DNA of 64,000 bases from contig JAHDIQ010000008.1 of NCBI GenBank assembly GCA_020630715.1, positions 87,003-151,002 of the forward strand, in the 5' to 3' direction. Numbering within the stretch: position 1 is the first letter of the stretch; every line of letters starts with the position of its first letter. The translations under genes were made by a program, and so were the position numbers. Positions 1,082 to 63,859 of this stretch are shown piece by piece. The stretch is from Nonlabens sp. GTDB lineage: Bacteria > Bacteroidota > Bacteroidia > Flavobacteriales > Flavobacteriaceae. The notes under the pieces were generated by a model. It was given only the letters and a program-made list of their open reading frames with translations, was not told where the DNA came from and did not search any database.

Positions 1082-1105
1082 ATTACGCTTTCGCGAAAGC
1101 GTAAT
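1082..1105. repeat. Dispersed palindrome, full 24-bp copy (core 1087-1100)
   Basis: This is the most complete copy in the window. The half ATTACGCTTTCG is followed by its exact reverse complement. It lies in the rpsO-pnp spacer. The core GCTTTCGCGAAAGC recurs across the window. Confidence 0.95.
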
Positions 1106-1131
1106 CAGGACTCACCTGAATGTTATGGTAT

Positions 1132-1154
1132 AAAAAAGGGGACGTAATGTCCCC
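1132..1154 (-). terminator. Rho-independent terminator after rpsO
   Basis: Read on the minus strand, GGGGAC and GTCCCC form a stem with a five-base loop, followed directly by six T. It starts 7 bases after the rpsO stop. It would limit read-through into pnp. Confidence 0.85.
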
Positions 1155-1160
1155 AATTTA

Positions 1161-1430
1161 TTACTTTCTAATACCTAATTCCTTAATCAACTCACGATAA
1201 GCAACGATATCTTTCTTCATTTTATAATCAAGAAGGGAACGTCTTTTACCTACCAGTTTAACCAGGCTACGCTCTGTGTTAAAATCGTGACGGTTTTGCT
1301 TAAGGTGTTCTGTTAAGTGGTTGATACGGTAAGTGAATAATGCGATTTGCGCATCTGTGTTACCGGTGTCGTTTGCATCTTTTCCATACTTAGAAAAGAT
1401 CTCTGCTTTTTTTTCTGGGCTCAAATACAT
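1161..1430 (-). CDS. rpsO: 30S ribosomal protein S15
   Basis: Primary 16S rRNA-binding protein of the small subunit platform. The product has 89 residues, the normal S15 length. It carries the family core (TGNTDAQIALFTYRINHLTEHL, here quoted in part as TGNTDAQIALF; LVGKRRSLLDYK) and ends in ELIKELGIRK. It is followed by its own terminator and then pnp, the order conserved in many bacteria. The start MYLSPEKK fits flavobacterial S15 proteins. Confidence 0.97.
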   Translation of the reverse strand: MYLSPEKKAEIFSKYGKDANDTGNTDAQIALFTYRINHLTEHLKQNRHDFNTERSLVKLVGKRRSLLDYKMKKDIVAYRELIKELGIRK

Positions 1431-1582
1431 GCCAAAATTATTTTAAATAATGAATATTATGTACGTCAGGTGATCTGACAGTGCTTAAAAGGTGTTCTTT
1501 TAAGCGGATGCAAATATAGCTTTATTTATTGGTTTTTAAGTTGTTGCTATGCTTAATTTATTTCATTTACTTTTTCCTATCA

Positions 1583-1663
1583 ACATGCCAAGTATTCGTC
1601 TTGGCATGTTTTAATTTGTGTTTAGTGTTTAAGACAATGCCAACACCAATAGTTGGCATGTCT
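1583..1663. repeat. Pair of REP-like hairpins sharing ATGCCAA
   Basis: The first hairpin has perfect 10-bp arms ACATGCCAAG (1583-1592) and CTTGGCATGT (1600-1609) with a 7-base loop. The second has AGACAATGCCAAC (1632-1644) and GTTGGCATGTCT (1652-1663), one base short of perfect. Both share the ATGCCAA/TTGGCAT stem, so this looks like a paired palindromic unit. It occupies a 571-base stretch (1431-2001) in which I see no gene. Confidence 0.7.
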
Positions 1664-1717
1664 AGGAGAATGGAAACGAGTAATCGATATTATCATTTCA
1701 ATTTCAAACCTTTCCGT

Positions 1718-1813
1718 CTTCGGCTTAGACCGAGTCCACCTTTCCTTAACCAAGGAAAGGAGCTTTAAGTCGTAACCACATACTGCAATCTCGGCTAAGC
1801 CGAGAAATGCAGT
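1718..1813. repeat. Further hairpins in the gene-free stretch before 2002
   Basis: Three structures follow each other: an imperfect CTTCGGCTTAGACCGAG (1718-1734); CCTTTCCTT/AAGGAAAGG with a 4-base loop (1739-1760); and a nested hairpin with outer ACTGCA/TGCAGT and inner TCTCGGCT/AGCCGAGA (1782-1813). The first and third share a TCGGCT core. The rest of 1431-2001 is AT-rich with no convincing gene. Confidence 0.6.
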
Positions 1814-2598: not shown

Positions 2599-2602
2599 AA
2601 TT

Positions 2603-4095: not shown

Positions 4096-5163
4096 TTAAA
4101 GCGTATTCACATTATTTAAGTCTTCAAAGGCTTTTTGTAAACGCGCTTTAAAGCTTTCTTCTCCTATACGTAACCATTTACGTGGATCGTAATATTTCTT
4201 ATTAGGTGAATCTGCTCCTGTAGGATTTCCTATTTGCGAAAGTAGAAAATCATTATTAGTATCCATATAACCTTTAATACCAGTGGCAAATGCCCATTGT
4301 AAATCTGTATCAATGTTCATTTTTACTACTCCATAACCTATAGATTCTCTAATTTCTTCTAGAGTAGATCCAGAACCACCATGAAATACAAAATCTATGT
4401 GGTTATGTTCTACACCATATTTTTGAGTAATGTATTCCTGTGAATTTTTCAGGATTTTAGGAGTAAGCTTTACATTTCCTGGCTTATAAACACCGTGAAC
4501 ATTCCCAAAAGCTGCTGCAATCGTAAAACGATCACTTACTTTCTTAAGTTCCTCATAGGCATAAGCAACTTCTTCTGGTTGTGTATATAATTTTGATTCA
4601 TCTACATCGCTATTATCTACACCATCTTCCTCACCACCAGTGATTCCTAGTTCTATTTCTAGGGTCATGTCCATTTTGGACATACGCTCTAGGTATCTTT
4701 TACAAATTTCTATGTTTTCCTCTAGCGGTTCTTCACTTAGGTCAATCATGTGTGAAGAGTATAAAGGTGTTCCGCTTTCGCGAAAGCGTAATTCACTAGC
4801 ATCTAGTAATCCATCGATCCATGGAAGTAATTTTTTAGCACAATGGTCTGTGTGAAGAATCACCGTTGCACCATAAGCTTCTGCCATTTGGTGAACGTGA
4901 TGTGCACCAGCAATACCACCTAAAATAGCACCGCGCTGTCCTTCATTTCCTAATCCTTTTCCCGCATTAAATTGCGCACCACCATTTGAAAACTGAATAA
5001 TTACTGGAGCGTTTAAAGCAGCGGCAGTTTCCATGACAGCATTCATACTATTACTACCTATAACGTTTACCGCTGGTAACGCATAGCCATTAGCTTTTGC
5101 ATGATTAAAAATTTCTTGAACTTGGTTCCCAGTAGCTACACCAGGTTTTATATTGTGACTCAT
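4096..5163 (-). CDS. fbaA: Fructose-bisphosphate aldolase, class II
   Basis: Zinc-dependent aldolase of glycolysis and gluconeogenesis, cleaving fructose 1,6-bisphosphate. The length (355 residues) is normal. Visible motifs are VILHTDHCA with the catalytic Asp and a zinc His, SSHMIDLSEE, ELGITGGEEDGV, GNVHGVYKPGNV, FHGGSGST and NIDTDLQWAF. The dispersed palindrome lies in-frame at 4774-4787 and encodes residues 126-130, RFRES, in the stretch before SGTPLYSSHM. Typical family members read roughly HFAETGKPL here, so the word replaces rather than lengthens the sequence. Next to accD on the same strand, with an 88-base gap. Confidence 0.97.
   Translation of the reverse strand: MSHNIKPGVATGNQVQEIFNHAKANGYALPAVNVIGSNSMNAVMETAAALNAPVIIQFSNGGAQFNAGKGLGNEGQRGAILGGIAGAHHVHQMAEAYGATVILHTDHCAKKLLPWIDGLLDASELRFRESGTPLYSSHMIDLSEEPLEENIEICKRYLERMSKMDMTLEIELGITGGEEDGVDNSDVDESKLYTQPEEVAYAYEELKKVSDRFTIAAAFGNVHGVYKPGNVKLTPKILKNSQEYITQKYGVEHNHIDFVFHGGSGSTLEEIRESIGYGVVKMNIDTDLQWAFATGIKGYMDTNNDFLLSQIGNPTGADSPNKKYYDPRKWLRIGEESFKARLQKAFEDLNNVNTL
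4774..4787. repeat. Dispersed palindrome inside fbaA
   Basis: Exact GCTTTCGCGAAAGC, read in the RFRES frame. The right flank continues as CGTAATT, like the intergenic copies. Confidence 0.95.
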
Positions 5164-8517: not shown

Positions 8518-9217
8518 AGTTTAAGAAAATTCCTCTAGTTTGCATACTGGCAACATTACCGGTGTAAGGACTGGAAGGATCTGCATCACGGATTAGCTCA
8601 TCATTAATCGCAAATACACCTCTAATTGAAGGCGTAAACTTGAAGAAGAATAAGTAGAAATCAATTCCTATTCCTATCTCGTAATTAAACAAATTAGTAC
8701 GCTGTCTGAATTGTCCTGTGCTATTATCATTAGGATTCTCCTCATTACTGGATAAGTTATGAGACCATGAGGCGCCACCTACAATAAATGGCTTCCAGTT
8801 ATTTAAACGTTTTGTAGAAAATTTCACTAGTAGTGGAACGTTGATATACGTTGAAGTTACTTCACGTTCAAAATCATTAGGCATCGTAAATGATGGATCA
8901 TTAAAAGTTAAATTACGCGTCACAAAACTAATTCCCGGTTCTAAGCGTAGATTAATATATTCATGAAGCTTTACATCACCTACTAGTCCTACATTAAAAC
9001 CTATTGAGGTTTCTGTGAGGATATCATCTGTTACTTCATTGTAGTCAAATTTATAATCGTACGAATTAAGACCTAAATAATAACCCCATGTATATCGTTT
9101 ATCGTCAATTTGACCTAAGCCACCAGTGGCATCATTAGATATTTTTTCTTTTACCCGTTGTCCTTGTACAACAGAAAAAGTTAATAGCATGGTTAAGAGT
9201 AGTACTACTGTTCTCAT
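8504..9217 (-). CDS. porT: PorT-like outer-membrane beta-barrel protein (T9SS-associated)
   Basis: PorT (SprT in Flavobacterium) is a membrane-associated protein needed for type IX secretion and gliding. The 237-residue product has a cleavable signal (MRTVVLLLTMLLTFSVVQGQ) and repeated amphipathic beta-strands (INLRLEPGISFVTRNL, INVPLLVKFSTKR, WKPFIVGGASW, FKFTPSIRGVFAINDEL), ending in the aromatic LNFTFQ. It starts 3 bases after ubiE on the same strand, an arrangement I associate with PorT in Bacteroidetes. Another small porin-family protein is the alternative. Confidence 0.75.
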   Translation of the reverse strand: MRTVVLLLTMLLTFSVVQGQRVKEKISNDATGGLGQIDDKRYTWGYYLGLNSYDYKFDYNEVTDDILTETSIGFNVGLVGDVKLHEYINLRLEPGISFVTRNLTFNDPSFTMPNDFEREVTSTYINVPLLVKFSTKRLNNWKPFIVGGASWSHNLSSNEENPNDNSTGQFRQRTNLFNYEIGIGIDFYLFFFKFTPSIRGVFAINDELIRDADPSSPYTGNVASMQTRGIFLNFTFQ

Positions 9218-9220
9218 TTC

Positions 9221-9952: not shown

Positions 9953-10003
9953 CTTTGATCTTTTAAGGTTGCAAAGATAAGGTAGAGTAGTGATGTTATT
10001 GTA

Positions 10004-10015
10004 ATTACGCTTTCG
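10004..10015. repeat. Half-copy of the dispersed palindrome
   Basis: ATTACGCTTTCG is exactly one half of the 24-bp element at 1082-1105, without the second half. A full core copy follows 36 bases later. Confidence 0.6.
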
Positions 10016-10016
10016 T

Positions 10017-10033
10017 ACTTCGATAAACTCAGT
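10017..10033. repeat. Short dispersed intergenic repeat ACTTCGATAAACTCAGT
   Basis: The same 17-mer with one mismatch occurs inverted at 46961-46977. It is probably part of a second family of intergenic repeats, and it lies between the half-copy and the full copy of the palindrome. Confidence 0.45.
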
Positions 10034-10050
10034 ATAAACTTCTTTATTCC

Positions 10051-10064
10051 GCTTTCGCGAAAGC
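10051..10064. repeat. Dispersed palindrome, ubiE-trkA spacer
   Basis: Exact core GCTTTCGCGAAAGC. Flanks CC and GAAATAAA are of the second flank type seen also at 39247. Confidence 0.95.
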
Positions 10065-14911: not shown

Positions 14912-14926
14912 CACAAACTATTGACA

Positions 14927-15568
14927 GTGCCTCAACTTATAAAAAAATACTTTCCGCATCTTACAGATCATCAAATGTCGCAATATGCACAACTAGGTGA
15001 ACTTTATGAACACTGGAATGCCCAAATAAACGTAATCTCTAGAAAGGATATTGACCAGTTGTATACCAGACATGTCCTACATTCATTAGGGATTGTTACG
15101 GTAGTGCGCTTTCGCGAAAGCTTACCCAACACACCAGGTGGAACTAGAGTGATGGATGTAGGAACTGGTGGCGGTTTTCCAGGAATACCACTAGCAATCA
15201 TGTTTCCTAAAACGCAATTCCACCTTATTGATGCGATAGGCAAGAAAATTAAGGTGGTAGATGCTGTAGTAGAAGCCTTAGGATTAACTAACGTGACTAC
15301 TCAACATGGACGTGCCGAAAAGGTGAAAGGAAAATTTGATTTTATTGTAAGTCGCGCGGTGACAAATATGCCAGATTTTGTAAAATGGACTCGTAATAAA
15401 ATACGTAAGGATAGTTATCACGAAGTGGAAAATGGGATTCTTTATTTAAAAGGTGGTGATTTAAAAGAAGAATTAAAACCATTTCCTTATGCTGATGTGT
15501 ATGAATTACCAAATGCTTTTGAAGAAGCATTTTTTGAAACCAAAAAAGTGGTACACTTACCACTATAA
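14927..15568 (+). CDS. rsmG: 16S rRNA (guanine(527)-N(7))-methyltransferase
   Basis: Methylates G527 of 16S rRNA. The 213-residue product has INVISRKD near residue 35, the SAM site VMDVGTGGGFPGIPLAI, HLIDAIGKKI and FDFIVSRAVTNMPDF. I chose the GTG giving MPQLIKKYFPHL because relatives start there and the promoter box lies over the earlier TTG codons. The dispersed palindrome at 15108-15121 encodes residues 61-65, RFRES, in the variable loop before the SAM motif. Confidence 0.93.
   Translation: MPQLIKKYFPHLTDHQMSQYAQLGELYEHWNAQINVISRKDIDQLYTRHVLHSLGIVTVVRFRESLPNTPGGTRVMDVGTGGGFPGIPLAIMFPKTQFHLIDAIGKKIKVVDAVVEALGLTNVTTQHGRAEKVKGKFDFIVSRAVTNMPDFVKWTRNKIRKDSYHEVENGILYLKGGDLKEELKPFPYADVYELPNAFEEAFFETKKVVHLPL
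15108..15121. repeat. Dispersed palindrome inside rsmG
   Basis: Exact core, read in the RFRES frame. Confidence 0.95.
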
Positions 15569-20842: not shown

Positions 20843-20856
20843 GCTTTCGCGAAAGC
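20843..20856. repeat. Dispersed palindrome, pruA-apaG spacer
   Basis: Exact core with ACG/CGTAAT flanks close to the 24-bp form. Confidence 0.95.
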
Positions 20857-24821: not shown

Positions 24822-24835
24822 GCTTTTGCGAAAGC
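24822..24835. repeat. Degenerate copy of the dispersed palindrome, Plug-nqrA spacer
   Basis: GCTTTTGCGAAAGC differs from the core by one base. Confidence 0.75.
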
Positions 24836-29006: not shown

Positions 29007-29020
29007 GCTTTCGCGAAAGC
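29007..29020. repeat. Dispersed palindrome between nqrD and nqrE
   Basis: Exact core within the longest gap of the nqr operon. The right flank reads GTAATT as in the 24-bp form. Confidence 0.95.
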
Positions 29021-39246: not shown

Positions 39247-39260
39247 GCTTTCGCGAAAGC
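39247..39260. repeat. Dispersed palindrome before the sugar-transporter gene end
   Basis: Exact core in the convergent spacer, 20 bases from the stop of the MFS gene. Confidence 0.95.
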
Positions 39261-41626: not shown

Positions 41627-41640
41627 GCTTTCGCGAAAGC
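41627..41640. repeat. Dispersed palindrome, glycosylasparaginase-GH92 spacer
   Basis: Exact core, left flank TTAC, right flank ATAATT. Confidence 0.95.
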
Positions 41641-46515: not shown

Positions 46516-46913
46516 TCCATATCTTTAAATGCTTTAAACTCTAAGGCATTACCGCTAGGATCTAGAAAAAACATGGTTGCCTGTTCACCAGGTAATCCTT
46601 CAAATCTGATGTAGGGTTCTATGATGAATTTGATATGCTTTTCTTGTAATGCTTTTGCAAAAGCTTGAAACACATCCCATTCTAGCACCACACCAAAATG
46701 TGGTACAGGAACTGCTTTACCGTCCACAGCATTACTAGAAACTCCAGGTGCGTTATCAGAAATATGAATTACCAGCTGGTGACCAAAAAAGTCAAAATCT
46801 ACCCAGTGATCACTACTGCGACCTTCAGTACAACCTAAAGTGTCTCTATAAAAATCACGCGTGGTCGTAATCTCTTTTACGGGAATGGCTAGGTGGAATG
46901 GCGTTAGTTTCAT
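46494..46913 (-). CDS. VOC-family (glyoxalase-like) protein
   Basis: A 139-residue vicinal-oxygen-chelate fold protein with two beta-alpha-beta-beta-beta units: LTPFHLAIPVKEITTTRDFYRDTLGC (in part) and VPVPHFGVVLEWD, ending FFLDPSGNALEFKAF. Metal ligand positions His and Glu are present. Substrate unknown. Residues from 46651-46664 read AFAKA and the DNA is a palindrome variant of the dispersed repeat. It overlaps the end of the amidohydrolase gene. Confidence 0.88.
   Translation of the reverse strand: MKLTPFHLAIPVKEITTTRDFYRDTLGCTEGRSSDHWVDFDFFGHQLVIHISDNAPGVSSNAVDGKAVPVPHFGVVLEWDVFQAFAKALQEKHIKFIIEPYIRFEGLPGEQATMFFLDPSGNALEFKAFKDMDQLFATE
46651..46664. repeat. Symmetric variant of the dispersed palindrome inside the VOC gene
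   Basis: GCTTTTGCAAAAGC differs from the core at two symmetric positions, so it is still perfectly palindromic. It encodes AFAKA. It could be coincidental. Confidence 0.45.
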
Positions 46914-47737: not shown

Positions 47738-48583
47738 TTACTTTTCTAAAAAGTCTATGATGAGTCTCGTGTTTTCTTCAGTATGTAAACTATGACCACC
47801 GGTATTTGTGATGTGTAATTCACTATTTTGCATGGCGTTGTGAATTTGCTGGCTAGCGCTTGCCGGTACCACTACATCTGCTTGTGCATGTAGTAATAAA
47901 GTTTCTGTGGATAACGCTTTCGCGAAAAGCGATACTTTAAAATCCTTTATGTAATAACCAAAATTCTTTTTAAGTAATTCATTTAAGGCACCATACACGC
48001 GATTATTAAAACTCAATAATTGCTGGTAACCTTTCATAATTACCTCTAGCGAGTTAGGACTTCCTAACAAGATTAACTTTTTAAGTGACTCAACAGGTTG
48101 TTCATGTACACTGTAAACCGTCGCCATCGCACCTACACTATGTGCCATAATAATTTCTGGCTGGTAAAGACTATTAACCGTTTTTATAATTCCGGCGTAT
48201 TTAATTGCTGTAAATAAGGTGCCATCTGTCATCCCATGTGCTGGTGCATCTATGGCTATAATGTTGTAGTTCCTTTTCTTTAATTCTGGGAAAACATATT
48301 TCCATCTAAAGCTATTTGATTCCCAACCGTGCAATAGCAAGATCGTAGGTCCATCACCTTGCCAGTGATACAGCATGAATAGTCCATCATCATAAGCGAT
48401 GCGTTGTTGCCTAGCAGTATCTAGAAATTCCTTTTGAATAGAATTAGAACGCACACGGCCACGTCTAGGTGTGCTAAAAACTTCTAGAGCCTTAATTCCA
48501 GCCTTTTCTTTATTAAAAAGTGCTATGAGGTTAAAGTAAAAGCCATACAGTTTAGGTATGGCTTTTTCTAATAGTTTTTTCAT
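47738..48583 (-). CDS. Alpha/beta hydrolase
   Basis: The 281-residue product has the alpha/beta-hydrolase fold: oxyanion motif LLLHGWESNSFRW, IIAIDAPAHGMTDG, nucleophile elbow MAHSVGAMA (Ala in place of the first Gly of GxSxG), an Asp in LLLHAQADVVVP and His in NTGGHSLHTEEN. Substrate unknown. A palindrome copy with one extra A encodes LFAKAL in the cap region. It lies 10 bases downstream of a lipoprotein gene. Confidence 0.87.
   Translation of the reverse strand: MKKLLEKAIPKLYGFYFNLIALFNKEKAGIKALEVFSTPRRGRVRSNSIQKEFLDTARQQRIAYDDGLFMLYHWQGDGPTILLLHGWESNSFRWKYVFPELKKRNYNIIAIDAPAHGMTDGTLFTAIKYAGIIKTVNSLYQPEIIMAHSVGAMATVYSVHEQPVESLKKLILLGSPNSLEVIMKGYQQLLSFNNRVYGALNELLKKNFGYYIKDFKVSLFAKALSTETLLLHAQADVVVPASASQQIHNAMQNSELHITNTGGHSLHTEENTRLIIDFLEK
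47916..47930. repeat. Dispersed palindrome with one inserted A, inside the hydrolase gene
   Basis: GCTTTCGCGAAAAGC. The extra base breaks the symmetry. The reading frame still yields FAKA. Confidence 0.85.
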
Positions 48584-50298: not shown

Positions 50299-51813
50299 TC
50301 AAATTAATGAATTTTGAGTCATTTCTTCAGGTTGTTTAACACCTATTAACTTTAATATGGTAGGAGCGAGGTCACCTAAAATACCATCTTTTACTTTTTT
50401 AAAGTCCTTATCAACTAAAATAATAGGAACAGGATTAGTGGTGTGCGCTGTGTTCACGCTACCATCTGGGTTGATCATTAATTCACAATTTCCATGGTCT
50501 GCGATGACGATTACGGTGTAATCATTCTCTTGAGAAGCTGTAATGACTTGCTTTGCTGCATCATCCACTGCCTCACATGCAGCTACGGCAGCCGCCATAG
50601 AACCCGTATGACCTACCATATCTGGATTAGCAAAATTGAGACAAATAAAATCGGCGTGTTGTTTATTAATTTCTGGAATGATACTGCTAGAAACGCAATC
50701 TATAGACATTTCTGGTTGTAGGTCATAGGTAGCAACCTTGGGCGAGTTGCACATAATGCGTTCTTCACCTTCAAATGGTTCTTCCTGTCCACCATTAAAG
50801 AAAAAGGTCACGTGTGGATATTTCTCCGTCTCGGCGATGCGTATTTGTTTTTTTCCAGCCTCTGATAATACCTGACCTAATGTGTTTTTTAAATTATCTT
50901 TTTCAAAGATCACTTTTACACCTTTATAGCTGTCATCATATTTAGTCATGGTGACGTAATACAAATCTAATGCATGTGTATTTTGCTTGTGAAAATCTTG
51001 TTGTGAAAGCATTTGCGTTAATTCCCTACCACGATCTGTGCGGTAGTTAAAAAAGATCACCACATCACCATTTTCAATAGTAGCTACCGGTTCTGTACCA
51101 TTAAGCATGACGATGGGTTCTATAAACTCATCCGTAATCCCATTCTCATAACTTGTTTTTATGCTCGATACCGCATCATGGCTAGGCGCACCTATTCCAT
51201 CTACTAATAAATGATAGGCTTGTGCCACACGATCCCATCGCTGGTCTCGATCCATCGCATAATAACGACCTATAACGCTGGCTAGTTGTGCATTTGTTCC
51301 TGCAATGTGTTTCTCTAGATGTGCGATATGTCCAGCACCAGATTTAGGATCTACATCGCGACCATCTGTAAAAGCATGGATAAAAACATCTTCTACGCCG
51401 TGTGTTTCGGCGACATCCAGTAATGCTTTTAAGTGATCTATATGAGCATGCACGCCACCATCAGAGACTAATCCTAGGAAATGAACTTTTTTGGATTCCG
51501 CTTTCGCGAAAGCTAAAGCATCCACAAGCACTTGCTCATCCTTTAGAGTGTTGTCTTTAATAGCTTTATTGATTTTTGCCAAATCCTGATACACAATTCT
51601 GCCAGCACCTAGATTCATATGGCCTACTTCACTATTTCCCATCTGACCTTCTGGAAGTCCTACATGTTCACCATCAGTACGCAATGTAGCATGCGGATAC
51701 TTGTCGTATAAACTATCTATAAAAAGTGTGTTAGCTTGTGCTATGGCACTTACTTTAGGATCTTGCGTGATTCCCCAACCGTCGAGAATCATTAAAATTG
51801 TTTTCTTATTCAA
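50299..51813 (-). CDS. gpmI: 2,3-bisphosphoglycerate-independent phosphoglycerate mutase
   Basis: Interconverts 3- and 2-phosphoglycerate in glycolysis, with two Mn ions and a phosphoserine. The 504-residue product has MILDGWG, the catalytic Ser61 in GQMGNSEVGHMN, HFLGLVSDGGVHAHIDHL, HAFTDGRDVDPKS, YYAMDRDQRWDR and IADHGNCELM. The palindrome at 51500-51513 encodes residues 101-105, AFAKA, where relatives typically have AYAKEN before the KKVHF strand, so the change is a substitution. Length is normal. Confidence 0.96.
   Translation of the reverse strand: MNKKTILMILDGWGITQDPKVSAIAQANTLFIDSLYDKYPHATLRTDGEHVGLPEGQMGNSEVGHMNLGAGRIVYQDLAKINKAIKDNTLKDEQVLVDALAFAKAESKKVHFLGLVSDGGVHAHIDHLKALLDVAETHGVEDVFIHAFTDGRDVDPKSGAGHIAHLEKHIAGTNAQLASVIGRYYAMDRDQRWDRVAQAYHLLVDGIGAPSHDAVSSIKTSYENGITDEFIEPIVMLNGTEPVATIENGDVVIFFNYRTDRGRELTQMLSQQDFHKQNTHALDLYYVTMTKYDDSYKGVKVIFEKDNLKNTLGQVLSEAGKKQIRIAETEKYPHVTFFFNGGQEEPFEGEERIMCNSPKVATYDLQPEMSIDCVSSSIIPEINKQHADFICLNFANPDMVGHTGSMAAAVAACEAVDDAAKQVITASQENDYTVIVIADHGNCELMINPDGSVNTAHTTNPVPIILVDKDFKKVKDGILGDLAPTILKLIGVKQPEEMTQNSLI
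51500..51513. repeat. Dispersed palindrome inside gpmI
   Basis: Exact core in the AFAKA frame. Confidence 0.95.
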
Positions 51814-53110: not shown

Positions 53111-54545
53111 TACAAATATTCTTAGGTTCTGTAAAGAAATTTAAGGCTTCAAAACCGCCTTCACGTCCTACACCACTGTCTTTTACACCGCCAAAAGGTG
53201 TGCGCAAATCACGATTCAACCAGGTATTTACCCAAACGATTCCCGCTTCAATTTCATTACTCATTCTCATCGTGCGACTTAAATTGCTGGTCCACAAGGT
53301 AGCACTTAATCCGTAGCGTGTACCATTTGCGAGTTCTAGCGCGTGCGCTTCATCTTTAAACGGCATGATGGTTACCACTGGCCCAAATATTTCTTCTTGG
53401 TTTAACTTACAATCGTTGGACTGGACTTCGATGATGGTAGGTTCTAGATAATAACCATCTTCATAGCCTGTTATGGTCACTTCATTTCCACCGATTAAGA
53501 TGTTGTATTCTTTGGGATTCGCTTTCGCGAAAGCGATATACTCTATAATTTTATCTCTATGACCAGCACTCACCACAGCACCTAGTTTAGAGTCGGCAGC
53601 ATCTGGATGGCCAACTCTAAGCTGCTTTACACGATCGACAAAGTCTTTTTTGAATTTCTCATAAAGTGATTGTTCCACTAAGATACGGCTACCGCAAAGA
53701 CAAATCTGCCCTTGATTAGCAAAGGAAGAACGTAGAGTAGTGGCGAGCATTTTATCATAATCACAGTCGGCAAAAATGATGTTAGGATTCTTACCACCTA
53801 GCTCTAGGGATAGTTTTTTAAACATAGGAGCAGCTGTTCTAGCGATGTGCTCGCCAGTGGTAGTTCCACCCGTAAAACTTATGGCTTTAATGCCTGGATG
53901 AGCGACAATCGCCTGTCCACAACTGCCACCTAAACCATGTACTATATTAAGGACACCAGCAGGTAATCCTGCTTTTTTCACTATTTCTCCAAGTAAGAAA
54001 GCGGTCGCTGGAGTGACTTCGCTAGGTTTTGCCACCACACAATTTCCTGCTGCAATCGCTGGAGCGATTTTCCAGCTGAATAAATACAAAGGCAAATTCC
54101 ATGGAGAAATACATCCTACGACACCTATAGGTTTGCGCAACGTGAAATTCATGGTGTTTTTACCTACAGATTCATGAGCGTCACTAGAATACTGCGTAAT
54201 CGCATTTCCATAAAAACGGAAGTTAGAAGAAGCACGAGGTATGTCAACGGCTTTTGCGAGCCATAAAGGTTTCCCATTATCGCGAGATTCGGCAGCGGCG
54301 AGTTCTTCTAGATTTTCTTCAATTAAGTCTGCGATGCGTAGCATGATTCTGGAACGCTCATCAATACTAGTATTGGACCAACTTTTAAATGCAGCGTTTG
54401 CAGCTTGATAGGCTTTTTCTACATCATCTTCATTTGAGTTAGGAATCTGTCCGTAGATTTTCCCAGATGCTGGTTCATAATTGTCTAGCCATAATCCACT
54501 TAGTGTAATGTGCTGCTCGTTATTGATGAAGTTTTTTAGATCCAT
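53100..54545 (-). CDS. Aldehyde dehydrogenase, probably 2-aminomuconate 6-semialdehyde dehydrogenase
   Basis: NAD-dependent dehydrogenase. The 481-residue product has CISPWNLPLYLFSWKIAPAI (in part), FTGGTTTGEHIA, LELGGKNPNIIFAD with the catalytic Glu, NQGQICLCGSRILV with the catalytic Cys, and EIFGPVVTIMPF. The assignment to aminomuconate semialdehyde rests on the adjacent RidA-like deaminase, kmo and kynU. The palindrome at 53521-53534 encodes residues 338-342, AFAKA. It is 11 bases downstream of the ridA-like gene. Confidence 0.86.
   Translation of the reverse strand: MDLKNFINNEQHITLSGLWLDNYEPASGKIYGQIPNSNEDDVEKAYQAANAAFKSWSNTSIDERSRIMLRIADLIEENLEELAAAESRDNGKPLWLAKAVDIPRASSNFRFYGNAITQYSSDAHESVGKNTMNFTLRKPIGVVGCISPWNLPLYLFSWKIAPAIAAGNCVVAKPSEVTPATAFLLGEIVKKAGLPAGVLNIVHGLGGSCGQAIVAHPGIKAISFTGGTTTGEHIARTAAPMFKKLSLELGGKNPNIIFADCDYDKMLATTLRSSFANQGQICLCGSRILVEQSLYEKFKKDFVDRVKQLRVGHPDAADSKLGAVVSAGHRDKIIEYIAFAKANPKEYNILIGGNEVTITGYEDGYYLEPTIIEVQSNDCKLNQEEIFGPVVTIMPFKDEAHALELANGTRYGLSATLWTSNLSRTMRMSNEIEAGIVWVNTWLNRDLRTPFGGVKDSGVGREGGFEALNFFTEPKNICIEY
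53521..53534. repeat. Dispersed palindrome inside the aldehyde dehydrogenase gene
   Basis: Exact core in the AFAKA frame, in a surface-loop region between the catalytic cysteine and the GPVV motif. Confidence 0.95.
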
Positions 54546-55624: not shown

Positions 55625-57019
55625 CTATCCTCGCAACCACAACACCTCTTCGGTTTTTTGCTGGATGGTTTTTAATAAATCGTTTAAACCGTCTTCTACT
55701 TTAATTTGAGCGTTTTCTAGTAGCCATAAAATCGCCTTGTCCTGTGCTCGTCCTCGTAGCATGGCTTCTCTATAGCTTATTCCTTTTTGTGGGAATGTTA
55801 CTAGGGAATATTTAGATTGGTATTCCGCTTTCGCGAAAGCTGCTTCTAAACGCATCTCGATTTGCCTTTTCAACTGGAAGTTAGGATTTGCTACACTGTC
55901 TCGCATCTCTACAAAATTGTCCAAAGCTAAATCTGCTATAGCATCTGCATCTGGTTTTCTAGTAGTGGAAAAAGCGGTGAATGCGTCAGCCCAATTCTCG
56001 TGCTTATCCAGCATCTCGTCAAAAACAACCACGTCTTCAAAACTCGCATTCATTCCTTGACCATAAAACGGTACAATCGCGTGAGCGGCGTCACCCATAA
56101 TAAGGCTTGTGCCGTAAGCGGTCCAAGGAGAACAACGCACCGTTCCTAATGGTGGCGCAGGATTAGTATGGTATTGTTCTACTAGGTCTGGAATGTGTTG
56201 CATCACATCCTTAAAGTAGGTGGTGAAAAAATCTGTTATTTCTTGATCTGTTTTGATCTTATTAAAGGCTGGTCCATCACCATCATACTGCATGAATAAA
56301 GTCAATGTGAAACTACCGTCTAGATTAGGTAGTGCGATCAACATAAAACCACCACGCGGCCAGATGTGTAGGAAGTTCTTCTCGATACGCCATTTTCCAT
56401 CATCAGTAGGTGGAATGTTGAGTTCTTTATAACCGTGTAGTAGCCAATTCATACTATGAGAGAATAGGTAGTCGCGCTGTTTCATCATCGCCTTGCGTAC
56501 TACAGATCCTGCTCCGTCAGTTCCTAAAACGATATCAGCGTTCCATTCTTTTTCCGTATCAGTCTCAGAATCGTGGTAGGTGACTGATGCGTTTTTTAAA
56601 TCTACTGCAGTTACGGCATCGTTAAAATCTATTTGAACATCTTCGTATTTATCTGCCTCGTCGAGTAATAACTTGTTGAGCTCTTCGCGCGAAATCGAAT
56701 TGATATATTCTCCATCGCGACCACTATAGTTAGAAGTAAAGGTGTTTCCTTCTACATCGTGAATCAAACGACCATTCATAGGAATGCAAAGCTCGCGTAC
56801 TTTTTCTTCTAGACCTACCAGTTTTAATCCTGCCAGTCCACGATCAGAAAGTGCCAGATTTATAGAACGTCCACCATCCACAATGTTTTTGCGCATGTCT
56901 GGTCGTTTTTCAAGTATATCTACATGATAGCCTCGTTGTGCCAGTCGCAGTCCTAAAAGAGAACCGCAAAGTCCAGCACCGGTGATGAGGATATTTGTTT
57001 TTTTGTTAGTTGTTTTCAT
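55625..57019 (-). CDS. kmo: Kynurenine 3-monooxygenase
   Basis: FAD-dependent hydroxylase turning L-kynurenine into 3-hydroxykynurenine. The 464-residue product has the FAD motif NILITGAGLCGSLLGLRLAQ, GRSINLALSDRG, VLGTDGAGSVVRKA, LPNLDGSFTLTLFM and LIMGDAAHAIVPFYGQGMNA (in part). A C-terminal helix region follows. The palindrome at 55827-55840 encodes residues 394-398, AFAKA, within a helical stretch (RLEAAFAKAEYQ). It lies downstream of kynU on the same strand. Confidence 0.95.
   Translation of the reverse strand: MKTTNKKTNILITGAGLCGSLLGLRLAQRGYHVDILEKRPDMRKNIVDGGRSINLALSDRGLAGLKLVGLEEKVRELCIPMNGRLIHDVEGNTFTSNYSGRDGEYINSISREELNKLLLDEADKYEDVQIDFNDAVTAVDLKNASVTYHDSETDTEKEWNADIVLGTDGAGSVVRKAMMKQRDYLFSHSMNWLLHGYKELNIPPTDDGKWRIEKNFLHIWPRGGFMLIALPNLDGSFTLTLFMQYDGDGPAFNKIKTDQEITDFFTTYFKDVMQHIPDLVEQYHTNPAPPLGTVRCSPWTAYGTSLIMGDAAHAIVPFYGQGMNASFEDVVVFDEMLDKHENWADAFTAFSTTRKPDADAIADLALDNFVEMRDSVANPNFQLKRQIEMRLEAAFAKAEYQSKYSLVTFPQKGISYREAMLRGRAQDKAILWLLENAQIKVEDGLNDLLKTIQQKTEEVLWLRG
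55827..55840. repeat. Dispersed palindrome inside kmo
   Basis: Exact core in the AFAKA frame. Confidence 0.95.
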
Positions 57020-57252: not shown

Positions 57253-58515
57253 TCACATCTCACTCTTCAAAACATCTACAAATCTCCAGCAGTCTTCATA
57301 ATTATTATATAAAGGAACTGGCGCAATACGTATCACGTCTGGTTCTCGCCAGTCTGCAATAACACCTTTTGCGGTGATGGCGTCAAATAATGATTTATCG
57401 GCATTTTTAACGGCTAGGGATAATTGACATCCACGATCTTTAGGATTGCTAGGTGTAATGATGGATATGCGATCACCGTCTAATTCTTTAAGTAAATACT
57501 CTAAATAGTTCGTGAGTTGGATCGATTTCTTTCTCAGCTTGTCAAATCCTGCTTGAGCAAATAAATCTAAACTAGATCGTATGGCTACCATACTTAATAT
57601 AGGTGGATTGGATAGTTGCCAACCTTCTGCACCATGCATAGGTTCAAAGTCGTCACGCATTTTAAAACGGGTATTTTTATTGTGTCCCCACCAACCTGTA
57701 AATCGTGGCAAGTCTGAATTGTTTGCATGACGTTCATGTACAAAACAACCACCTAAGCTTCCTGGTCCAGAATTCATATACTTATAAGTACACCATACAG
57801 CAAAGTCGGCTCCAGAATCGTGTAATTGTAAATCTACATTTCCAGCACCATGCGCACAGTCAAATCCTACCATGGCTCCAGCATCGTGTCCTAACTCAGT
57901 GATTCTTTTCAGATTAAAAAACTGTCCTGTATAGTAATTTACTGCTCCTACCATAATCAGAGCGATTTCATCACCTTGTTCTTTTAAAATGGTTTCTAGA
58001 TCTTCTAGCCTAGGTGTATGTTCACCAGCTCGCGGTGACCATTCTATGATATTTTCTTTATCATCATAGCCGTGAAATTGCACTTGAGATGCTACCGCAT
58101 AGCGATCACTAGGAAACGCATCTGCCTCAATAATGATTTTAGTACGCTTGCCTTTAGGCTGGTAAAAACTCACCATCATTAAGTGAAGATTAGTGGTCAG
58201 AGTATTCATGATCACTACTTCGTGCGGTTTTGCACCTACGATTTGCGCAGTAGTTTCGGTTAAGAATTCATGATACGGCATCCATGGATGTGCAGCGTGA
58301 AAATGTCCTTCTACACCTAATCGTGCCCAGTCGTCTAATTCTTGATTCAGAAAGGTTTTGGTTTGTCGCGGTTGCAATCCTAACGAATTCCCGCATAAAT
58401 AGATGCTGTCTGTTCCGTCGGTATGCTTTGGAATATGGAAGCTTTCGCGAAAGCGAGATAATTCATCATCGCGGTCTAATTGTAAAGCAAAGTCTCTGGT
58501 AGGTTGAAAATCCAT
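57253..58515 (-). CDS. kynU: Kynureninase
   Basis: PLP enzyme that cleaves kynurenine or 3-hydroxykynurenine to anthranilate or 3-hydroxyanthranilate and alanine. The 420-residue product has YLCGNSLGLQPRQTK, EADAFPSDRYAVASQVQFHG (in part), GFDCAHGAGNVDLQLHD, the PLP lysine in WCTYKYMNSGPGSLGG, and FTGWWGHN. The palindrome at 58441-58454 encodes residues 21-25, RFRES, close to the N-terminus. It overlaps the upstream lipoprotein gene by one base and is followed by kmo. Confidence 0.96.
   Translation of the reverse strand: MDFQPTRDFALQLDRDDELSRFRESFHIPKHTDGTDSIYLCGNSLGLQPRQTKTFLNQELDDWARLGVEGHFHAAHPWMPYHEFLTETTAQIVGAKPHEVVIMNTLTTNLHLMMVSFYQPKGKRTKIIIEADAFPSDRYAVASQVQFHGYDDKENIIEWSPRAGEHTPRLEDLETILKEQGDEIALIMVGAVNYYTGQFFNLKRITELGHDAGAMVGFDCAHGAGNVDLQLHDSGADFAVWCTYKYMNSGPGSLGGCFVHERHANNSDLPRFTGWWGHNKNTRFKMRDDFEPMHGAEGWQLSNPPILSMVAIRSSLDLFAQAGFDKLRKKSIQLTNYLEYLLKELDGDRISIITPSNPKDRGCQLSLAVKNADKSLFDAITAKGVIADWREPDVIRIAPVPLYNNYEDCWRFVDVLKSEM
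58441..58454. repeat. Dispersed palindrome inside kynU
   Basis: Exact core in the RFRES frame. Confidence 0.95.
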
Positions 58516-59292: not shown

Positions 59293-60570
59293 ATGAAACA
59301 GGTTAATAGAAATACGGTAAGTAAAGGGAGAAAGCTAAGTGTTATTCTAGTCTTAGGTACGCTTATCGCTGTAGGTCCATTTTCTATTGATGCTTACTTA
59401 CCAGCATTTAAACAAATTGCTACAGATTTTAAGGTAGAAACTAGTGCCATAGGTTTTACGCTTACTACTTATTTTATAGGAATAGGATTAGGACAGCTAG
59501 CTTATGGGCCTTTAATGGATCGTTATGGCAGGCGCAAACCACTTATCGCTGGATTAATTCTATATATAATAACTAGTGTTTTAAGTGCCTATGCATGGGA
59601 TGTGAATTCTCTTGCGGCATTACGGTTTTTTACTGCGTTAGGCGCTTGTGCTGGAATGGTGGCTAGTAAGGCGATTGTAAGAGATCTATTTGATGAAGAG
59701 CAAGTTGCAGAGGTGTTAAGCACACTCATGCTTATTATGGGAATCGCTCCTATAATTGCGCCTACCATAGGCGGATTTATTATAGAATACTATCACTGGG
59801 AAATGATATTTTATGGTCTAGCAGCCTTTGCGACTTTAATGTTGTTTAATGTTGTTTTTATCTTACCAGAAAGTGCAACACCTAACCGTGCTACTAGCTT
59901 ACGTCCTATTCCTGTATTAAGAGAATATTGGACCATATATAAGGATAAGGCTTTTTTCCTTTTCTCTACAGCTCGTGGTTTTGTGATAGGAGCTTTGCTG
60001 GGTTACGTTGCTGCAGCACCGTTTATTTTTTTGGAATATTTTGATATGGAGCAAAGTGATTTTGCGATCATTTTTGGAAGTAATGCTTTTGGTCTGATTG
60101 CCGGTAGCCAGATTAACAGATTGTTTTTAAGACGTTTTACCACTTTTCAAATCACTTATGTGGTGAGTGTGCTTCTGGTGATTACGACTTTGTTTTTACT
60201 GGTTCATTTAATTGCTTTTGAGGCGCGGTTTTGGATGGTATATCCTGCGTTATTTATCATGATGACCTTTATAGGTTTCCAGAATCCTAATGTCACTGCC
60301 CTTGCGTTGCGTCCGTTTACAGTGAGAGCAGGTAGTGCTAGTGCATTTGTAGGCGCGGTGAGTATGATTTTTGGTTCGTTTGCGAGCTGGTTTGTCGCTA
60401 GTTATGTGACGGTTTCTTTGCTTCCGCTGGGTATAATGCTTGCTGGTTGTGCGGTGTTTGGACACCTAGCGATAGAGGTGTTTAGAGTAAAATATGCTCG
60501 TGGTTACGCTTTCGCGAAAGCGTATTTAAAACATCCTTACATACAAACTAAGAGAAATAGGTGGTCATAG
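59293..60570 (+). CDS. Bcr/CflA-type multidrug efflux MFS transporter
   Basis: Twelve-segment drug:proton antiporter. The 425-residue product has GPFSIDAYLPAFKQIATDF, LGQLAYGPLMDRYGRRKPLIAGL (in part), LGACAGMVASKAIVRDLFD and MGIAPIIAPTIGGFI, all of the Bcr/CflA family. The palindrome at 60508-60521 encodes residues 406-410, AFAKA, near the end, after RVKYARGY. The last 15 residues (YLKHPYIQTKRNRWS) follow it and may be an added tail. Confidence 0.9.
   Translation: MKQVNRNTVSKGRKLSVILVLGTLIAVGPFSIDAYLPAFKQIATDFKVETSAIGFTLTTYFIGIGLGQLAYGPLMDRYGRRKPLIAGLILYIITSVLSAYAWDVNSLAALRFFTALGACAGMVASKAIVRDLFDEEQVAEVLSTLMLIMGIAPIIAPTIGGFIIEYYHWEMIFYGLAAFATLMLFNVVFILPESATPNRATSLRPIPVLREYWTIYKDKAFFLFSTARGFVIGALLGYVAAAPFIFLEYFDMEQSDFAIIFGSNAFGLIAGSQINRLFLRRFTTFQITYVVSVLLVITTLFLLVHLIAFEARFWMVYPALFIMMTFIGFQNPNVTALALRPFTVRAGSASAFVGAVSMIFGSFASWFVASYVTVSLLPLGIMLAGCAVFGHLAIEVFRVKYARGYAFAKAYLKHPYIQTKRNRWS
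60508..60521. repeat. Dispersed palindrome at the 3' end of the MFS gene
   Basis: Exact core with TAC/GTA flanks (symmetric over 60505-60524), in the AFAKA frame. Confidence 0.95.
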
Positions 60571-61524: not shown

Positions 61525-61630
61525 TGTTTTAGTTTTTTTGTTGAACAGCACAAATAACTTTAAAGAGTATCCCATCGCTGTCCCATAATTATCATATTTT
61601 GTGTCAAATGTGTTATTTTTTTGTGATACT

Positions 61631-61638
61631 TAAGTTTG
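61631..61638 (+). promoter_or_regulatory. TAnnTTTG-type -7 box of the OmpR-type two-component operon
   Basis: TAAGTTTG fits TAnnTTTG and lies 12 bases before the ATG. No well-spaced -33 TTG is visible. Confidence 0.4.
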
Positions 61639-61649
61639 ATTTTTAACAC

Positions 61650-62351
61650 ATGGAAAATCAAATACTTATTGTAGAGGACGATTTAGATATTGTAGACCTC
61701 TTAGAGATTCATATGAAAGATCTGAATGCACAGGTCGAAAGTGTTACAGATGGTGAGATGGCATTGCAAAAAGCAAAAGCAAACGACTACGATTTGATCT
61801 TATTAGACCTTTCTATTCCTAAAATTAATGGCGTTGAGGTCTGTAGGGAGATACGTAAAACTAAGAACACTCCTATAATAATGGTTACCGCTAGGACTGA
61901 GGAGATCGATAAAGTATTAGGTCTAGAAATAGGAGCAGATGATTATATCACAAAGCCGTTTTCAATAAGAGAGTTAAAAGCACGCGCCAAAGCTGTTATG
62001 CGAAGAAGTGATCAAACGATTCATCAAAATGAAAATGCTAAATCGAAGCCTTTGGATTTTGGCGAGTTGAAAATTAATGTGGAGATGCGTAGGGTTACTA
62101 TTAATGACGTTAAGATTGAATTATCACCTAAAGAGTTTGATCTTTTGGTTTTATTAGCTAGTCATCCTGGTCGTAGCTATAGTAGATCAGAGTTATTAGA
62201 TGTAATATGGGGTTATAATTTTTCAGGTTATGAACACACCGTTAATTCTCATATCAACAGGTTACGTGCTAAAATTGAGCCTGACATGGGCAACCCTAGT
62301 TATGTACTTACCACATGGGGAATAGGATATAGATTTAATGAAGAAGCTTAA
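61650..62351 (+). CDS. OmpR/PhoB-family response regulator
   Basis: The 233-residue product has a receiver domain with acidic pair at 10-11, phosphoacceptor Asp53 (LILLDLSIPKINGVEV) and the conserved Lys in DDYITKPFS, and a winged-helix DNA-binding domain (LSPKEFDLLVLLASHPGRSYSR in part; YEHTVNSHINRLRAKIE; VLTTWGIGYRF). It lies 2 bases upstream of the kinase gene. Confidence 0.95.
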   Translation: MENQILIVEDDLDIVDLLEIHMKDLNAQVESVTDGEMALQKAKANDYDLILLDLSIPKINGVEVCREIRKTKNTPIIMVTARTEEIDKVLGLEIGADDYITKPFSIRELKARAKAVMRRSDQTIHQNENAKSKPLDFGELKINVEMRRVTINDVKIELSPKEFDLLVLLASHPGRSYSRSELLDVIWGYNFSGYEHTVNSHINRLRAKIEPDMGNPSYVLTTWGIGYRFNEEA

Positions 62352-62353
62352 TT

Positions 62354-63841
62354 ATGAAAAAACAATCTACTCTTACACCTAAGCTCGTATTCAAATTATG
62401 GCTAGCAGTTGCAATTTTAATTCTAGGTATGGCAGTATGTTATATCCTGGTCACCAACTACTTTTCTAATAAACATCATTTAGCAACTGAACAGCGCATT
62501 CACGCTCCATTAGCACAGCATCTGATTGACGAAAAATTTGCAGAGGCTGCTCCTTTTTCACCAGATGGAACTGTCAATAAGGCCATATTTGGTGATTTGA
62601 TGCATGATATGATGGCGGTAAATAGAAGCATTGAGGTTTATTTGTTGAGTATTAAGGGTGAAGTTTTGCATTCTGTAGTTTTAGATCACGATCCTAAGAA
62701 TCCCTCACAATTTATTGATACTAAACCTATATTAGATTTTATAGCTTCAGATTATAAAGGCTTTTGTTTAGGTGATGATCCTAGAGATATGGAAAATCGT
62801 AAAATTTTCTCTGTAGCGCCGTTTGAGAATAATGGTAAAGAAGGATATATCTATATTATTCTTTCGGGAGAGGCTTATGAAGTCGCCAGTAGTAATATCT
62901 TTAATAAATTCATTAAGAGTTTTGGTATAGGAGCAATAGTGATTACAAGTGTCTTTACAGTTTTAATTGGTTTTGTGTTAATTTGGTTTATTACTCGAAA
63001 TTTAAGAACTATCACTCAAGTTGCTCGCAGATTTAAGGAAGGTGATTTAACTGCTAGAATTGAAAATCCAGAAAAAACAGACATAGCTGTATTTGCTCAT
63101 ACTTTTAATGACATGGCAGAAACTATTAATGATAATCTAGATGAAATTAAATCCGTAGATGAATTAAGAAGGCAATTAATAGCAAATGTATCGCATGATC
63201 TTAGAACGCCATTAGCAATTTTAAAGGGTTATGCTGATACGTTGCAGGAAAAATCAGAACAATTATCTAATTCTGATAAGGCAAAATATTTAAAGGTGAT
63301 TAGTTCTAATAGTGATAAACTCACTAAACTGGTAGAACAACTTTTTGAGTATTCTAAATTAGAGGCAAAACAAATAGAACCGTTAATGGAGCAATTCTCC
63401 ATAACAGATCTGTGCTTAGACCTTGTTACTAAATATGAAATATTAGCAAGAAACAAGAACATAAACATTAGTCTTGAAGTTCATGACAATCAAAACATAT
63501 TGGTTTATGCTGATTTAAGTCTTATAGAGAGAGCATTACAGAATTTATTAGACAATGCACTCAAGTTTACTCTAGATGATGGAGATATAAAGATTCGTTT
63601 ACAACAAAATGATAGGTATTGCGAAATCAGTGTTAATGATTCTGGCATAGGTATATCACCGGAGACACAGTCTACAATTTTTGAACGTTTTAAGCAGGCT
63701 AGCACTGAGTTCTCTAAAAACGGAGCAGGTTTGGGATTGGCAATTGTAAAGAAGATTCTTGAATTACATCATTCAAACATCACTGTTGTAAGTGAAAAAG
63801 AAATAGGAAGTTCCTTTTCCTTTGCTCTTCCTACGGGTTAA
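62354..63841 (+). CDS. Membrane sensor histidine kinase
   Basis: The 495-residue product has an N-terminal membrane segment (LWLAVAILILGMAVCYILVTNYF in part), a periplasmic sensor part of about 150 residues, a second segment (IGAIVITSVFTVLIGFVLIWF in part), a HAMP domain (RRFKEGDLTARIE), a HisKA domain with NVSHDLRTPLAIL (His281), and an ATPase domain (LLDNALKFT, DSGIGISPETQ, GAGLGLAIVKKIL). It forms a pair with the upstream regulator. Signal unknown. Confidence 0.95.
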   Translation: MKKQSTLTPKLVFKLWLAVAILILGMAVCYILVTNYFSNKHHLATEQRIHAPLAQHLIDEKFAEAAPFSPDGTVNKAIFGDLMHDMMAVNRSIEVYLLSIKGEVLHSVVLDHDPKNPSQFIDTKPILDFIASDYKGFCLGDDPRDMENRKIFSVAPFENNGKEGYIYIILSGEAYEVASSNIFNKFIKSFGIGAIVITSVFTVLIGFVLIWFITRNLRTITQVARRFKEGDLTARIENPEKTDIAVFAHTFNDMAETINDNLDEIKSVDELRRQLIANVSHDLRTPLAILKGYADTLQEKSEQLSNSDKAKYLKVISSNSDKLTKLVEQLFEYSKLEAKQIEPLMEQFSITDLCLDLVTKYEILARNKNINISLEVHDNQNILVYADLSLIERALQNLLDNALKFTLDDGDIKIRLQQNDRYCEISVNDSGIGISPETQSTIFERFKQASTEFSKNGAGLGLAIVKKILELHHSNITVVSEKEIGSSFSFALPTG

Positions 63842-63845
63842 TATC

Positions 63846-63859
63846 GCTTTGGCGAAAGC
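63846..63859. repeat. Degenerate copy of the dispersed palindrome after the kinase gene
   Basis: GCTTTGGCGAAAGC differs from the core by one base. The remaining 140 bases to the window end hold no gene I can support, apart from a direct repeat GTGTCATATT at 63954 and 63981. Confidence 0.7.

What the first reader, a model, noticed from the sequence alone, without database searches (positions are those of the whole stretch)
1082..63859. A 14-bp palindrome, GCTTTCGCGAAAGC, is scattered at about one copy per 3-4 kb
Seen directly: 15 exact copies (1087, 4774, 10051, 15108, 20843, 29007, 33245, 39247, 41627, 42527, 51500, 53521, 55827, 58441, 60508) and 4 near copies (24822, 46651, 47916, 63846). 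A given 14-mer is expected about 0.0002 times in 64 kb of even composition, and less in AT-rich DNA. Six exact copies lie between genes although genes fill about nine tenths of the window. Spacing is 0.9 to 6 kb and copies are denser to the right. Known analogues differ in sequence: DNA uptake signals, cyanobacterial HIP1, KOPS/matS-type chromosome sites. Which kind this is, if any, is inference.
Basis: partly seen in the sequence, partly recalled or inferred. Interest (0 to 1): 0.93.

Follow-up and report, generated by a model that had tools for sequence, protein, structure and literature searches.

The report
Nonlabens palindromic self-DNA uptake tag
A 14-letter DNA palindrome is repeated hundreds of times, evenly spaced and strongly conserved, in the genomes of the marine bacterial genus Nonlabens, where it likely serves as a 'take up your own kind's DNA' tag, a function that is predicted and untested.

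Summary
GCTTTCGCGAAAGC occurs 15 times exactly in the window (0.06 expected even with two mismatches) and 609 times in the 2.98 Mb genome (reversed-word control 0), a Nonlabens (Flavobacteriaceae). All 23 Nonlabens genomes held carry 288-857 copies. Of 393 other family genomes sampled, only two, of two genera, are comparably rich (408, 857); the rest have 0-19. The word is the core of a symmetric footprint of about 80 bp: outward G(T/A/G)AAT, then about 30 bp poor in G on both sides. Copies are evenly spaced (CV 0.50 against 0.97 at random) without visible origin-terminus gradient, and stay in place in relatives: 43 of 59 aligned site-genome pairs exact against 4% of random 14-mers. Neighbouring sequence is less conserved. 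The two longest copy-free gaps hold O-antigen-type and restriction/AbiH genes. This is the signature of DNA uptake sequences, here palindromic and in a phylum where my searches found none reported. The reader protein was not found; uptake is untested.

The parts
1087..1100 (.). exact copy
   Evidence: between genes; exact in 3 of 3 relatives aligned there
4774..4787 (.). exact copy inside the class II fructose-bisphosphate aldolase gene (4096-5163 -)
   Evidence: exact at the same place in 20 of 23 Nonlabens genomes; nearest outgroup has other residues and no indel there
10051..10064 (.). exact copy, between genes
   Evidence: exact in 1 (G002) of 5 aligned relatives
15108..15121 (.). exact copy, inside coding frame 14909-15568 +
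   Evidence: exact in 7 of 7 aligned relatives
20843..20856 (.). exact copy, between genes
   Evidence: exact in 4 of 5 aligned relatives
24822..24835 (.). near copy, 1 mismatch (GCTTTTGCGAAAGC)
   Evidence: exact in 2 (G002, G009) of 7 aligned relatives
29007..29020 (.). exact copy, between genes
   Evidence: exact in 2 of 7 aligned relatives
33245..33258 (.). exact copy, in gene 31214-34216 +
   Evidence: exact in the one relative aligned there, G002
39247..39260 (.). exact copy, between genes
   Evidence: no relative aligned there
41627..41640 (.). exact copy, between genes
   Evidence: no relative aligned there
42527..42540 (.). exact copy, in gene 41677-44607 -
   Evidence: 1 mismatch in both relatives aligned there
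46651..46664 (.). near copy, 2 mismatches
   Evidence: no relative aligned there
47916..47929 (.). near copy, 2 mismatches
   Evidence: no relative aligned there
51500..51513 (.). exact copy, in gene 50299-51813 -
   Evidence: exact in 4 of 4 aligned relatives
53521..53534 (.). exact copy, in gene 53100-54545 -
   Evidence: exact in 2 of 2 aligned relatives
55827..55840 (.). exact copy, in gene 55625-57019 -
   Evidence: exact in 5 of 6 aligned relatives
58441..58454 (.). exact copy, in the kynureninase gene 57253-58515 -
   Evidence: exact in 4 of 5 aligned relatives
60508..60521 (.). exact copy, in gene 59293-60570 +
   Evidence: exact in 3 of 3 aligned relatives
63846..63859 (.). near copy, 1 mismatch
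   Evidence: exact in the one relative aligned there, G016

Best explanation
GCTTTCGCGAAAGC is repeated 609 times in this Nonlabens genome and likely works as a DNA uptake sequence: a predicted outer-membrane DNA receptor would prefer fragments that carry it, so that the cell would take in and recombine mainly the DNA of its own kind. Shown here: the excess, the symmetric footprint of about 80 bp, the even spacing of about 5 kb, conservation in place over DNA that is only about 70-75% identical, less conserved surroundings, absence from an O-antigen-type cluster and from a restriction/AbiH stretch, and presence of ComEC and of the DUF5689 + CarboxypepD_reg-barrel gene pair whose homologues Riemerella needs for transformation. 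Inferred: that Nonlabens is competent, that this receptor (or a partner of it) reads the palindrome, and that biased uptake followed by homologous recombination creates, spreads and repairs the copies. One copy per imported fragment would suffice, which would explain the even spacing.
For: Excess genome-wide and genus-wide. Near forms are few: 103 with one mismatch against 609 exact. In place in relatives: 43 of 59 aligned site-genome pairs exact against 9,380 of 235,356 random 14-mers (4.0%) of the same alignments; aldolase site exact in 20 of 23 genomes. Identity is 0.89 within the 14 bp, 0.65-0.73 within about 36 bp on either side and 0.75 over all alignments: a conserved motif in permissive places, as reported for neisserial DUS (abstract and passages of PMC2397512). 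In the aldolase the DNA word goes with residues that differ from the nearest outgroup, without an indel. Even spacing (also 83 sites in seven relatives, CV 0.62 against 0.98), no visible gradient round one chromosome. The two longest copy-free gaps found are an O-antigen-type cluster and a stretch with a type I restriction subunit and AbiH. Nonlabens phage P12024S, the one named phage looked at, has no copy with up to 2 mismatches in 35.7 kb. ComEC in 28 of 28 genomes tested, DUF5689 in 16 of 16 Nonlabens tested, beside the barrel gene in this genome. Riemerella needs homologues of that pair (passages of PMC8459023) and R. columbina prefers its own DNA (section 16 of PMC7965970). 0 of 5 comparable genic sites (protein identity 48-74%) are shared in place between Nonlabens and the two other rich genera, as expected if copies accumulate anew once a reader is present.
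Against: No uptake or transformation of any Nonlabens was seen in a paper or tested. The same machine is present in motif-poor genera, and its trees do not single out the motif-rich genomes: the DUF5689 protein of G022 groups with motif-poor genera, and the barrel clade that holds all 15 motif-rich rows also holds G030, G033, G330, G380 and G188 (0-19 copies). A perfect palindrome with symmetric arms suits a two-fold symmetric cytoplasmic DNA-binding protein at least as well; the USS and DUS known to me are not palindromes. Some phage-like IMG/VR contigs carry the word at host-like spacing, one between portal and major-head genes. The second-longest copy-free gap also holds a core gene, SRP54, and it ends at the edge of the stretch fetched; six other gaps over 9 kb were listed but their genes not identified. 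G234 lacks the G-poor arms (13 sites). Number of gains is undecided: one clade of the motif-rich genera is not rejected by the parAB locus (p-AU 0.125).
Confidence: 0.5

Rival explanations
1. A chromosome-organising site: a dimeric nucleoid protein binds the palindrome and wraps or bends about 80 bp every 5 kb, for example to set supercoil domains or load condensin.
For: Two-fold symmetry and a symmetric footprint of about 80 bp in genic and intergenic copies alike; even spacing and no gradient round the chromosome; depletion in convergent gaps, 2 sites in 9.4 kb against 35 in 49.8 kb of other gaps.
Against: No genus-wide second ParB (Noc-like): one PF02195 match in 24 of 28 genomes, two in G014, G019, G033, G061. 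No origin or terminus bias seen. The other motif-rich genera share none of 5 comparable sites with Nonlabens and the best parAB tree sets them apart from it (not settled), which would ask for hundreds of sites to arise again.
Confidence: 0.25
2. A HIP1-like word kept by a DNA methyltransferase and a linked repair process.
For: A highly repeated palindrome in genes and gaps, as HIP1 in cyanobacteria (abstract of PMC4390886). Of 16 one-mismatch forms, 7 are at the sixth position from an end, the C of a CpG, and 6 of these are C-to-T type, as decay of a methylated C would give.
Against: 9 of 23 Nonlabens genomes have no C5 methyltransferase match. The whole 14-mer and its arms matter, longer than the methyltransferase sites known to me; after masking, CGCG is below and TCGCGA at its Markov expectation. 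In HIP1, per that abstract, one-base deviations gather at the ends; here 11 of 16 are at the fifth and sixth positions from an end. Adenine methyltransferases were not tested.
Confidence: 0.1
3. Remnants of a small mobile palindrome (REP/RAYT or MITE type) that inserted and was kept.
For: Hairpin-capable palindrome, more frequent between genes than expected: 37 of 82 in about 15% of the DNA. In 20 of 42 protein comparisons the outgroup has a gap at the site, though many of these repeat the same two genes.
Against: No shared sequence beyond a degenerate arm; at the aldolase site the word stands with no insertion; even spacing and retention in place.
Confidence: 0.05
4. A regulator or RNA-level signal (global transcription factor site, terminator or processing hairpin).
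For: Intergenic excess; the RNA could form a short hairpin (sequence).
Against: More than half of the copies are inside genes (45 of 82 by my caller); the flanking pattern is much the same and mirror-symmetric in genic and intergenic copies; convergent gaps, where terminators lie, are depleted.
Confidence: 0.1

Closest known systems
DNA uptake sequences: DUS of Neisseriaceae, USS of Pasteurellaceae
   Same: Hundreds to thousands of copies, sharply conserved core, in permissive spots of the core genome, rare in acquired DNA (abstract and passages of PMC2397512); USS has AT-tracts beside the core that help uptake (passages of PMC7811141); related species share the word or have dialects of it, and one-base variants added 21% in one species (passages of PMC3630211), against 17% here.
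   Different: Palindromic and 14 bp with symmetric arms; in Bacteroidota; about one per 5 kb, against about one per 1 kb for USS; any reader would be a non-pilus machine; no uptake data.
HIP1 (GCGATCGC) of cyanobacteria
   Same: Highly iterated palindrome in coding and non-coding DNA.
   Different: HIP1 is 8 bp and associated with orphan methyltransferases (abstract of PMC4390886); here no genus-wide C5 methyltransferase, a 14-bp core and long arms.
Noc/NBS, ParB/parS, SlmA, MatP/matS chromosome sites (recalled)
   Same: Short palindromes or near-palindromes bound by dimers.
   Different: Those are tens of sites with origin or terminus bias (recalled); here over 600 without visible gradient and no extra ParB genus-wide.
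Riemerella natural transformation machine (ComEC, DprA, ComF, RecA, DUF5689 protein, CarboxypepD_reg barrel, HHH protein, DUF1343 protein)
   Same: ComEC and an adjacent DUF5689 + barrel pair are in this genome.
   Different: No uptake word is given for it in what I read; the 7-10-mer counts in PMC7965970 gave only A/T-rich words (section 16 read). The other genes of the machine were not looked for here.

Membership tests
DNA uptake sequence (DUS/USS) | Short word in great excess over composition across the genome | tested here: met
   609 copies, control 0; 147 in 744 kb against 0.0006 expected at order 3
DNA uptake sequence (DUS/USS) | Conserved in place, in permissive spots | tested here: met
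   43 of 59 aligned pairs exact against 4.0%; lower identity around than within the word
DNA uptake sequence (DUS/USS) | Rare in recently acquired DNA | tested here: inconclusive
   Two longest gaps hold O-antigen-type and restriction/AbiH genes, the second also SRP54; genes of 2 of the 8 listed gaps examined; one Nonlabens phage has none, but some phage-like contigs have copies
DNA uptake sequence (DUS/USS) | Host encodes transformation genes (ComEC and the Riemerella-type surface pair) | tested here: met
   ComEC 28 of 28; DUF5689 16 of 16 Nonlabens tested; adjacent barrel in this genome; DprA, ComF, HHH and DUF1343 genes not tested
DNA uptake sequence (DUS/USS) | A receptor that reads the word, specific to genomes that have it | tested here: inconclusive
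   DUF5689 and barrel trees do not separate rich from poor cleanly
DNA uptake sequence (DUS/USS) | The word raises uptake or transformation | not testable with these tools
   needs cells
HIP1-type iterated palindrome | Cognate methyltransferase in genomes that have the word | tested here: inconclusive
   C5 family PF00145: no match in 9 of 23 Nonlabens, so not met for that family; adenine methyltransferases not tested
HIP1-type iterated palindrome | One-base deviations gather at the ends of the word | tested here: not met
   11 of 16 at the fifth and sixth positions from an end
Noc/ParB-type chromosome site | Extra ParB-family reader in the genus | tested here: not met
   PF02195: single match in 10 of 12 Nonlabens tested
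Noc / matS / KOPS-type site | Origin, terminus or strand bias | tested here: not met
   20 spread stretches of G019 hold 2-10 copies; over the 19 unmasked ones mean 5.05, variance 3.5; no formal gradient test; the palindrome has no direction
REP/RAYT or MITE | Copies share a longer repeated sequence | tested here: not met
   beyond the core only degenerate arms
REP/RAYT or MITE | Copies arise by insertion | tested here: inconclusive
   aldolase site has no indel; of 42 comparisons 18 show no gap, 4 a gap nearby, 20 a gap at the site, with repeats of the same genes

The most novel reading that the evidence does not exclude
Probability: 0.35. Interest if true: 0.92.

Novelty: new variant of a known kind. 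Interest (0 to 1): 0.82.

Why it matters
Self-recognising uptake words are known to me from two proteobacterial families. A palindromic one in Bacteroidota would show that species-specific DNA uptake evolved again with other machinery, would make transformation in marine flavobacteria testable with short synthetic DNA, and would give a tracer for DNA that leaves these genera. If it is a nucleoid site instead, it would be, to my knowledge, among the densest sequence-specific chromosome marks described in bacteria.

Tried and rejected
Exact and partial words in open-access full text, Nonlabens with palindrome, transformation or competence, uptake words and natural competence in Bacteroidetes and repeated palindromes with nucleoid terms: nothing that describes this word was seen in the listings, which show at most 30 papers each (164 papers held a 9- or 10-letter piece of the word). 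Nothing outside that library was searched.
Full report
1. The observation. The genome (G000, 2,978,537 bases in 17 contigs) holds 609 exact copies and 712 with up to one mismatch; the reversed control word has none. In 744,418 bases held from this genome there are 147 copies against 0.0006 expected at Markov order 3 and 0.63 at order 5; order 6 gives 31 because the copies' own 7-mers enter, and 0.016 with the copies masked.

2. The organism. The genes are of Bacteroidota type (TamL, Nqr, kynureninase). These five named loci carry 2-7 copies each; the 75 other named loci kept (of 286 relatives found) carry none.

3. Distribution. All 23 Nonlabens genomes held have 288-857 copies. Of 397 family genomes drawn (4 of them Nonlabens), 80 have a match; outside Nonlabens only G234 (408) and G250 (857) are rich, and the other 391 have 0-19. 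Of 395 genomes drawn over the class, outside the family none has more than 4. Low counts in other genera are often clustered in islands; one is a copper-efflux operon shared by several genomes. In two genomes with 16 and 19 copies there is no mass of one-mismatch remnants (G120 26, G330 28 with up to one mismatch).

4. Anatomy. From 82 sites (164 half-sites), outward from the core: G 82%, T/A/G, A 77%, A 84%, T 69%, then G is 2-14% over positions 5 to 21 and recovers by about position 40. The pattern is mirror-symmetric and much the same in genic and intergenic copies, so it belongs to the DNA rather than to one strand's RNA. G250 shares it (27 sites); G234, at 45% GC, keeps only the inner arm weakly (13 sites). 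One-mismatch forms: 16 in 403 kb, 11 of them at the fifth and sixth positions from an end.

5. Placement. By my simple gene caller 45 of 82 sites are in genes and 37 in gaps that make about 15% of the DNA; convergent gaps are depleted (2 sites in 9.4 kb against 35 in 49.8 kb). In genes the word is read as AFAKA (25), RFRES (11) or LSRK (9). Spacing of 101 sites in 503 kb: mean 4.9 kb, CV 0.50; none of 5,000 random placements was as even, and 2 intervals are under 1 kb against 17.8 expected; 83 sites in seven relatives: CV 0.62 against 0.98 at random. In G250 and G234 the CV is 0.54 and 0.61. On the single-contig chromosome G019, 20 stretches spread round it hold 2-10 copies; over the 19 not masked the mean is 5.05 and the variance 3.5. 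No formal gradient test was made.

6. Selection. Aligning contig C6 with 40-60 kb from each of seven relatives, 43 of 59 aligned site-genome pairs keep all 14 bases, 6 more differ by one and 10 are lost; 4.0% of random 14-mers of the same alignments are identical. Identity is 0.89 inside the word, 0.65-0.73 within about 36 bp on either side, and 0.75 over all alignments. The aldolase copy is exact in 20 of 23 genomes, and there Nonlabens has RFRES where the nearest outgroup loci (Leeuwenhoekiella L233, L290) have YYKEH, without an indel. Of the 42 genic comparisons, 18 show no gap, 4 a gap nearby and 20 a gap at the site; many of these are the same two genes seen in several relatives, and some pairs are under 30% identical.

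7. Who could read it. Not a genus-wide C5 methyltransferase and not a second ParB. Riemerella, placed in the Flavobacteriaceae by the papers, transforms with ComEC, DprA, ComF, RecA and, among others, a DUF5689 protein with a barrel partner (PMC8459023, passages), and R. columbina prefers its own DNA (PMC7965970, section 16 read). This genome has ComEC and an adjacent pair of the same make-up at L383:7679-9112 and 9115-11955. DUF5689 is family-wide: 38 of 40 genomes tested. The barrel tree puts Nonlabens, G250 and G234 with five poor genomes in one supported clade (100/99), while the parAB locus puts G234 and G250 together and apart from Nonlabens, which sits with poor G033, G330 and G120 (96/99). 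But a single motif-rich clade is not rejected by parAB (0.125) and is disfavoured by the barrel (0.014).

8. Reading. Even spacing, mutation-resistant core, permissive placement, absence from the two longest copy-free gaps' O-antigen-type and restriction/AbiH genes and from one Nonlabens phage, and a patchy rich state together match uptake sequences better than any other kind known to me. Against it stand the palindromic symmetry, the unidentified reader, the family-wide machine, a core gene (SRP54) in one of the two gaps, and phage-like contigs with copies. I put uptake at 0.5 and a chromosome-organising site at 0.25.

9. Recalled, from no call: G002 as N. dokdonensis DSW-6, G019 as N. marinus S1-08 and G131 as Croceibacter atlanticus, from their genome sizes; the properties of Noc, SlmA and matS sites; that known DUS and USS are not palindromes; and typical lengths of methyltransferase sites.

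Noticed in passing
L302, L303, L305, L306 (G145, G259, G131, G122); same spacing listed for G204, and with one mismatched partner in L309 and L315: A copper-efflux operon (in L303: RND pump, outer-membrane efflux protein, HTH regulator, multicopper oxidase) carries two copies of the word exactly 933 bp apart in several otherwise motif-poor genera: DNA that may have come from a motif-rich donor.
   Followed up: partly
L163, L184, L187, L112, L129 (IMG/VR contigs): Phage-like contigs with 2-3 copies 3-7 kb apart; portal and major-head genes in L163, a tape-measure gene in L184.
   Followed up: partly
L333, L337, L338, L339, L345, L350: A copy lies about 15 bp beyond the stop codon of the DUF5689 gene in 6 of 11 Nonlabens loci, also in G022 (L339), whose DUF5689 gene is of another lineage: the gene may have been replaced while the tag stayed.
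   Followed up: no
L387:14760-20000 and L388:1-10174: 15.4 kb without a copy, 31% GC: O-antigen-type cluster (Wzt-like ABC protein, glycosyltransferases, NeuB, UDP-GlcNAc 2-epimerase).
   Followed up: yes
L381:6517-20000: At least 13.5 kb without a copy, with a type I restriction subunit (EcoEI_R_C) next to AbiH, but also the core gene SRP54.
   Followed up: partly
window 1374-1486 (-): Rfam S15 ribosomal leader RF00114, 43.3 bits, in a Bacteroidota genome.
   Followed up: no
L380:1667, L374:6237, G000:C6:41292: Copies in what look by eye like signal peptides, spelling AFAKA shortly before a likely cleavage site.
   Followed up: no
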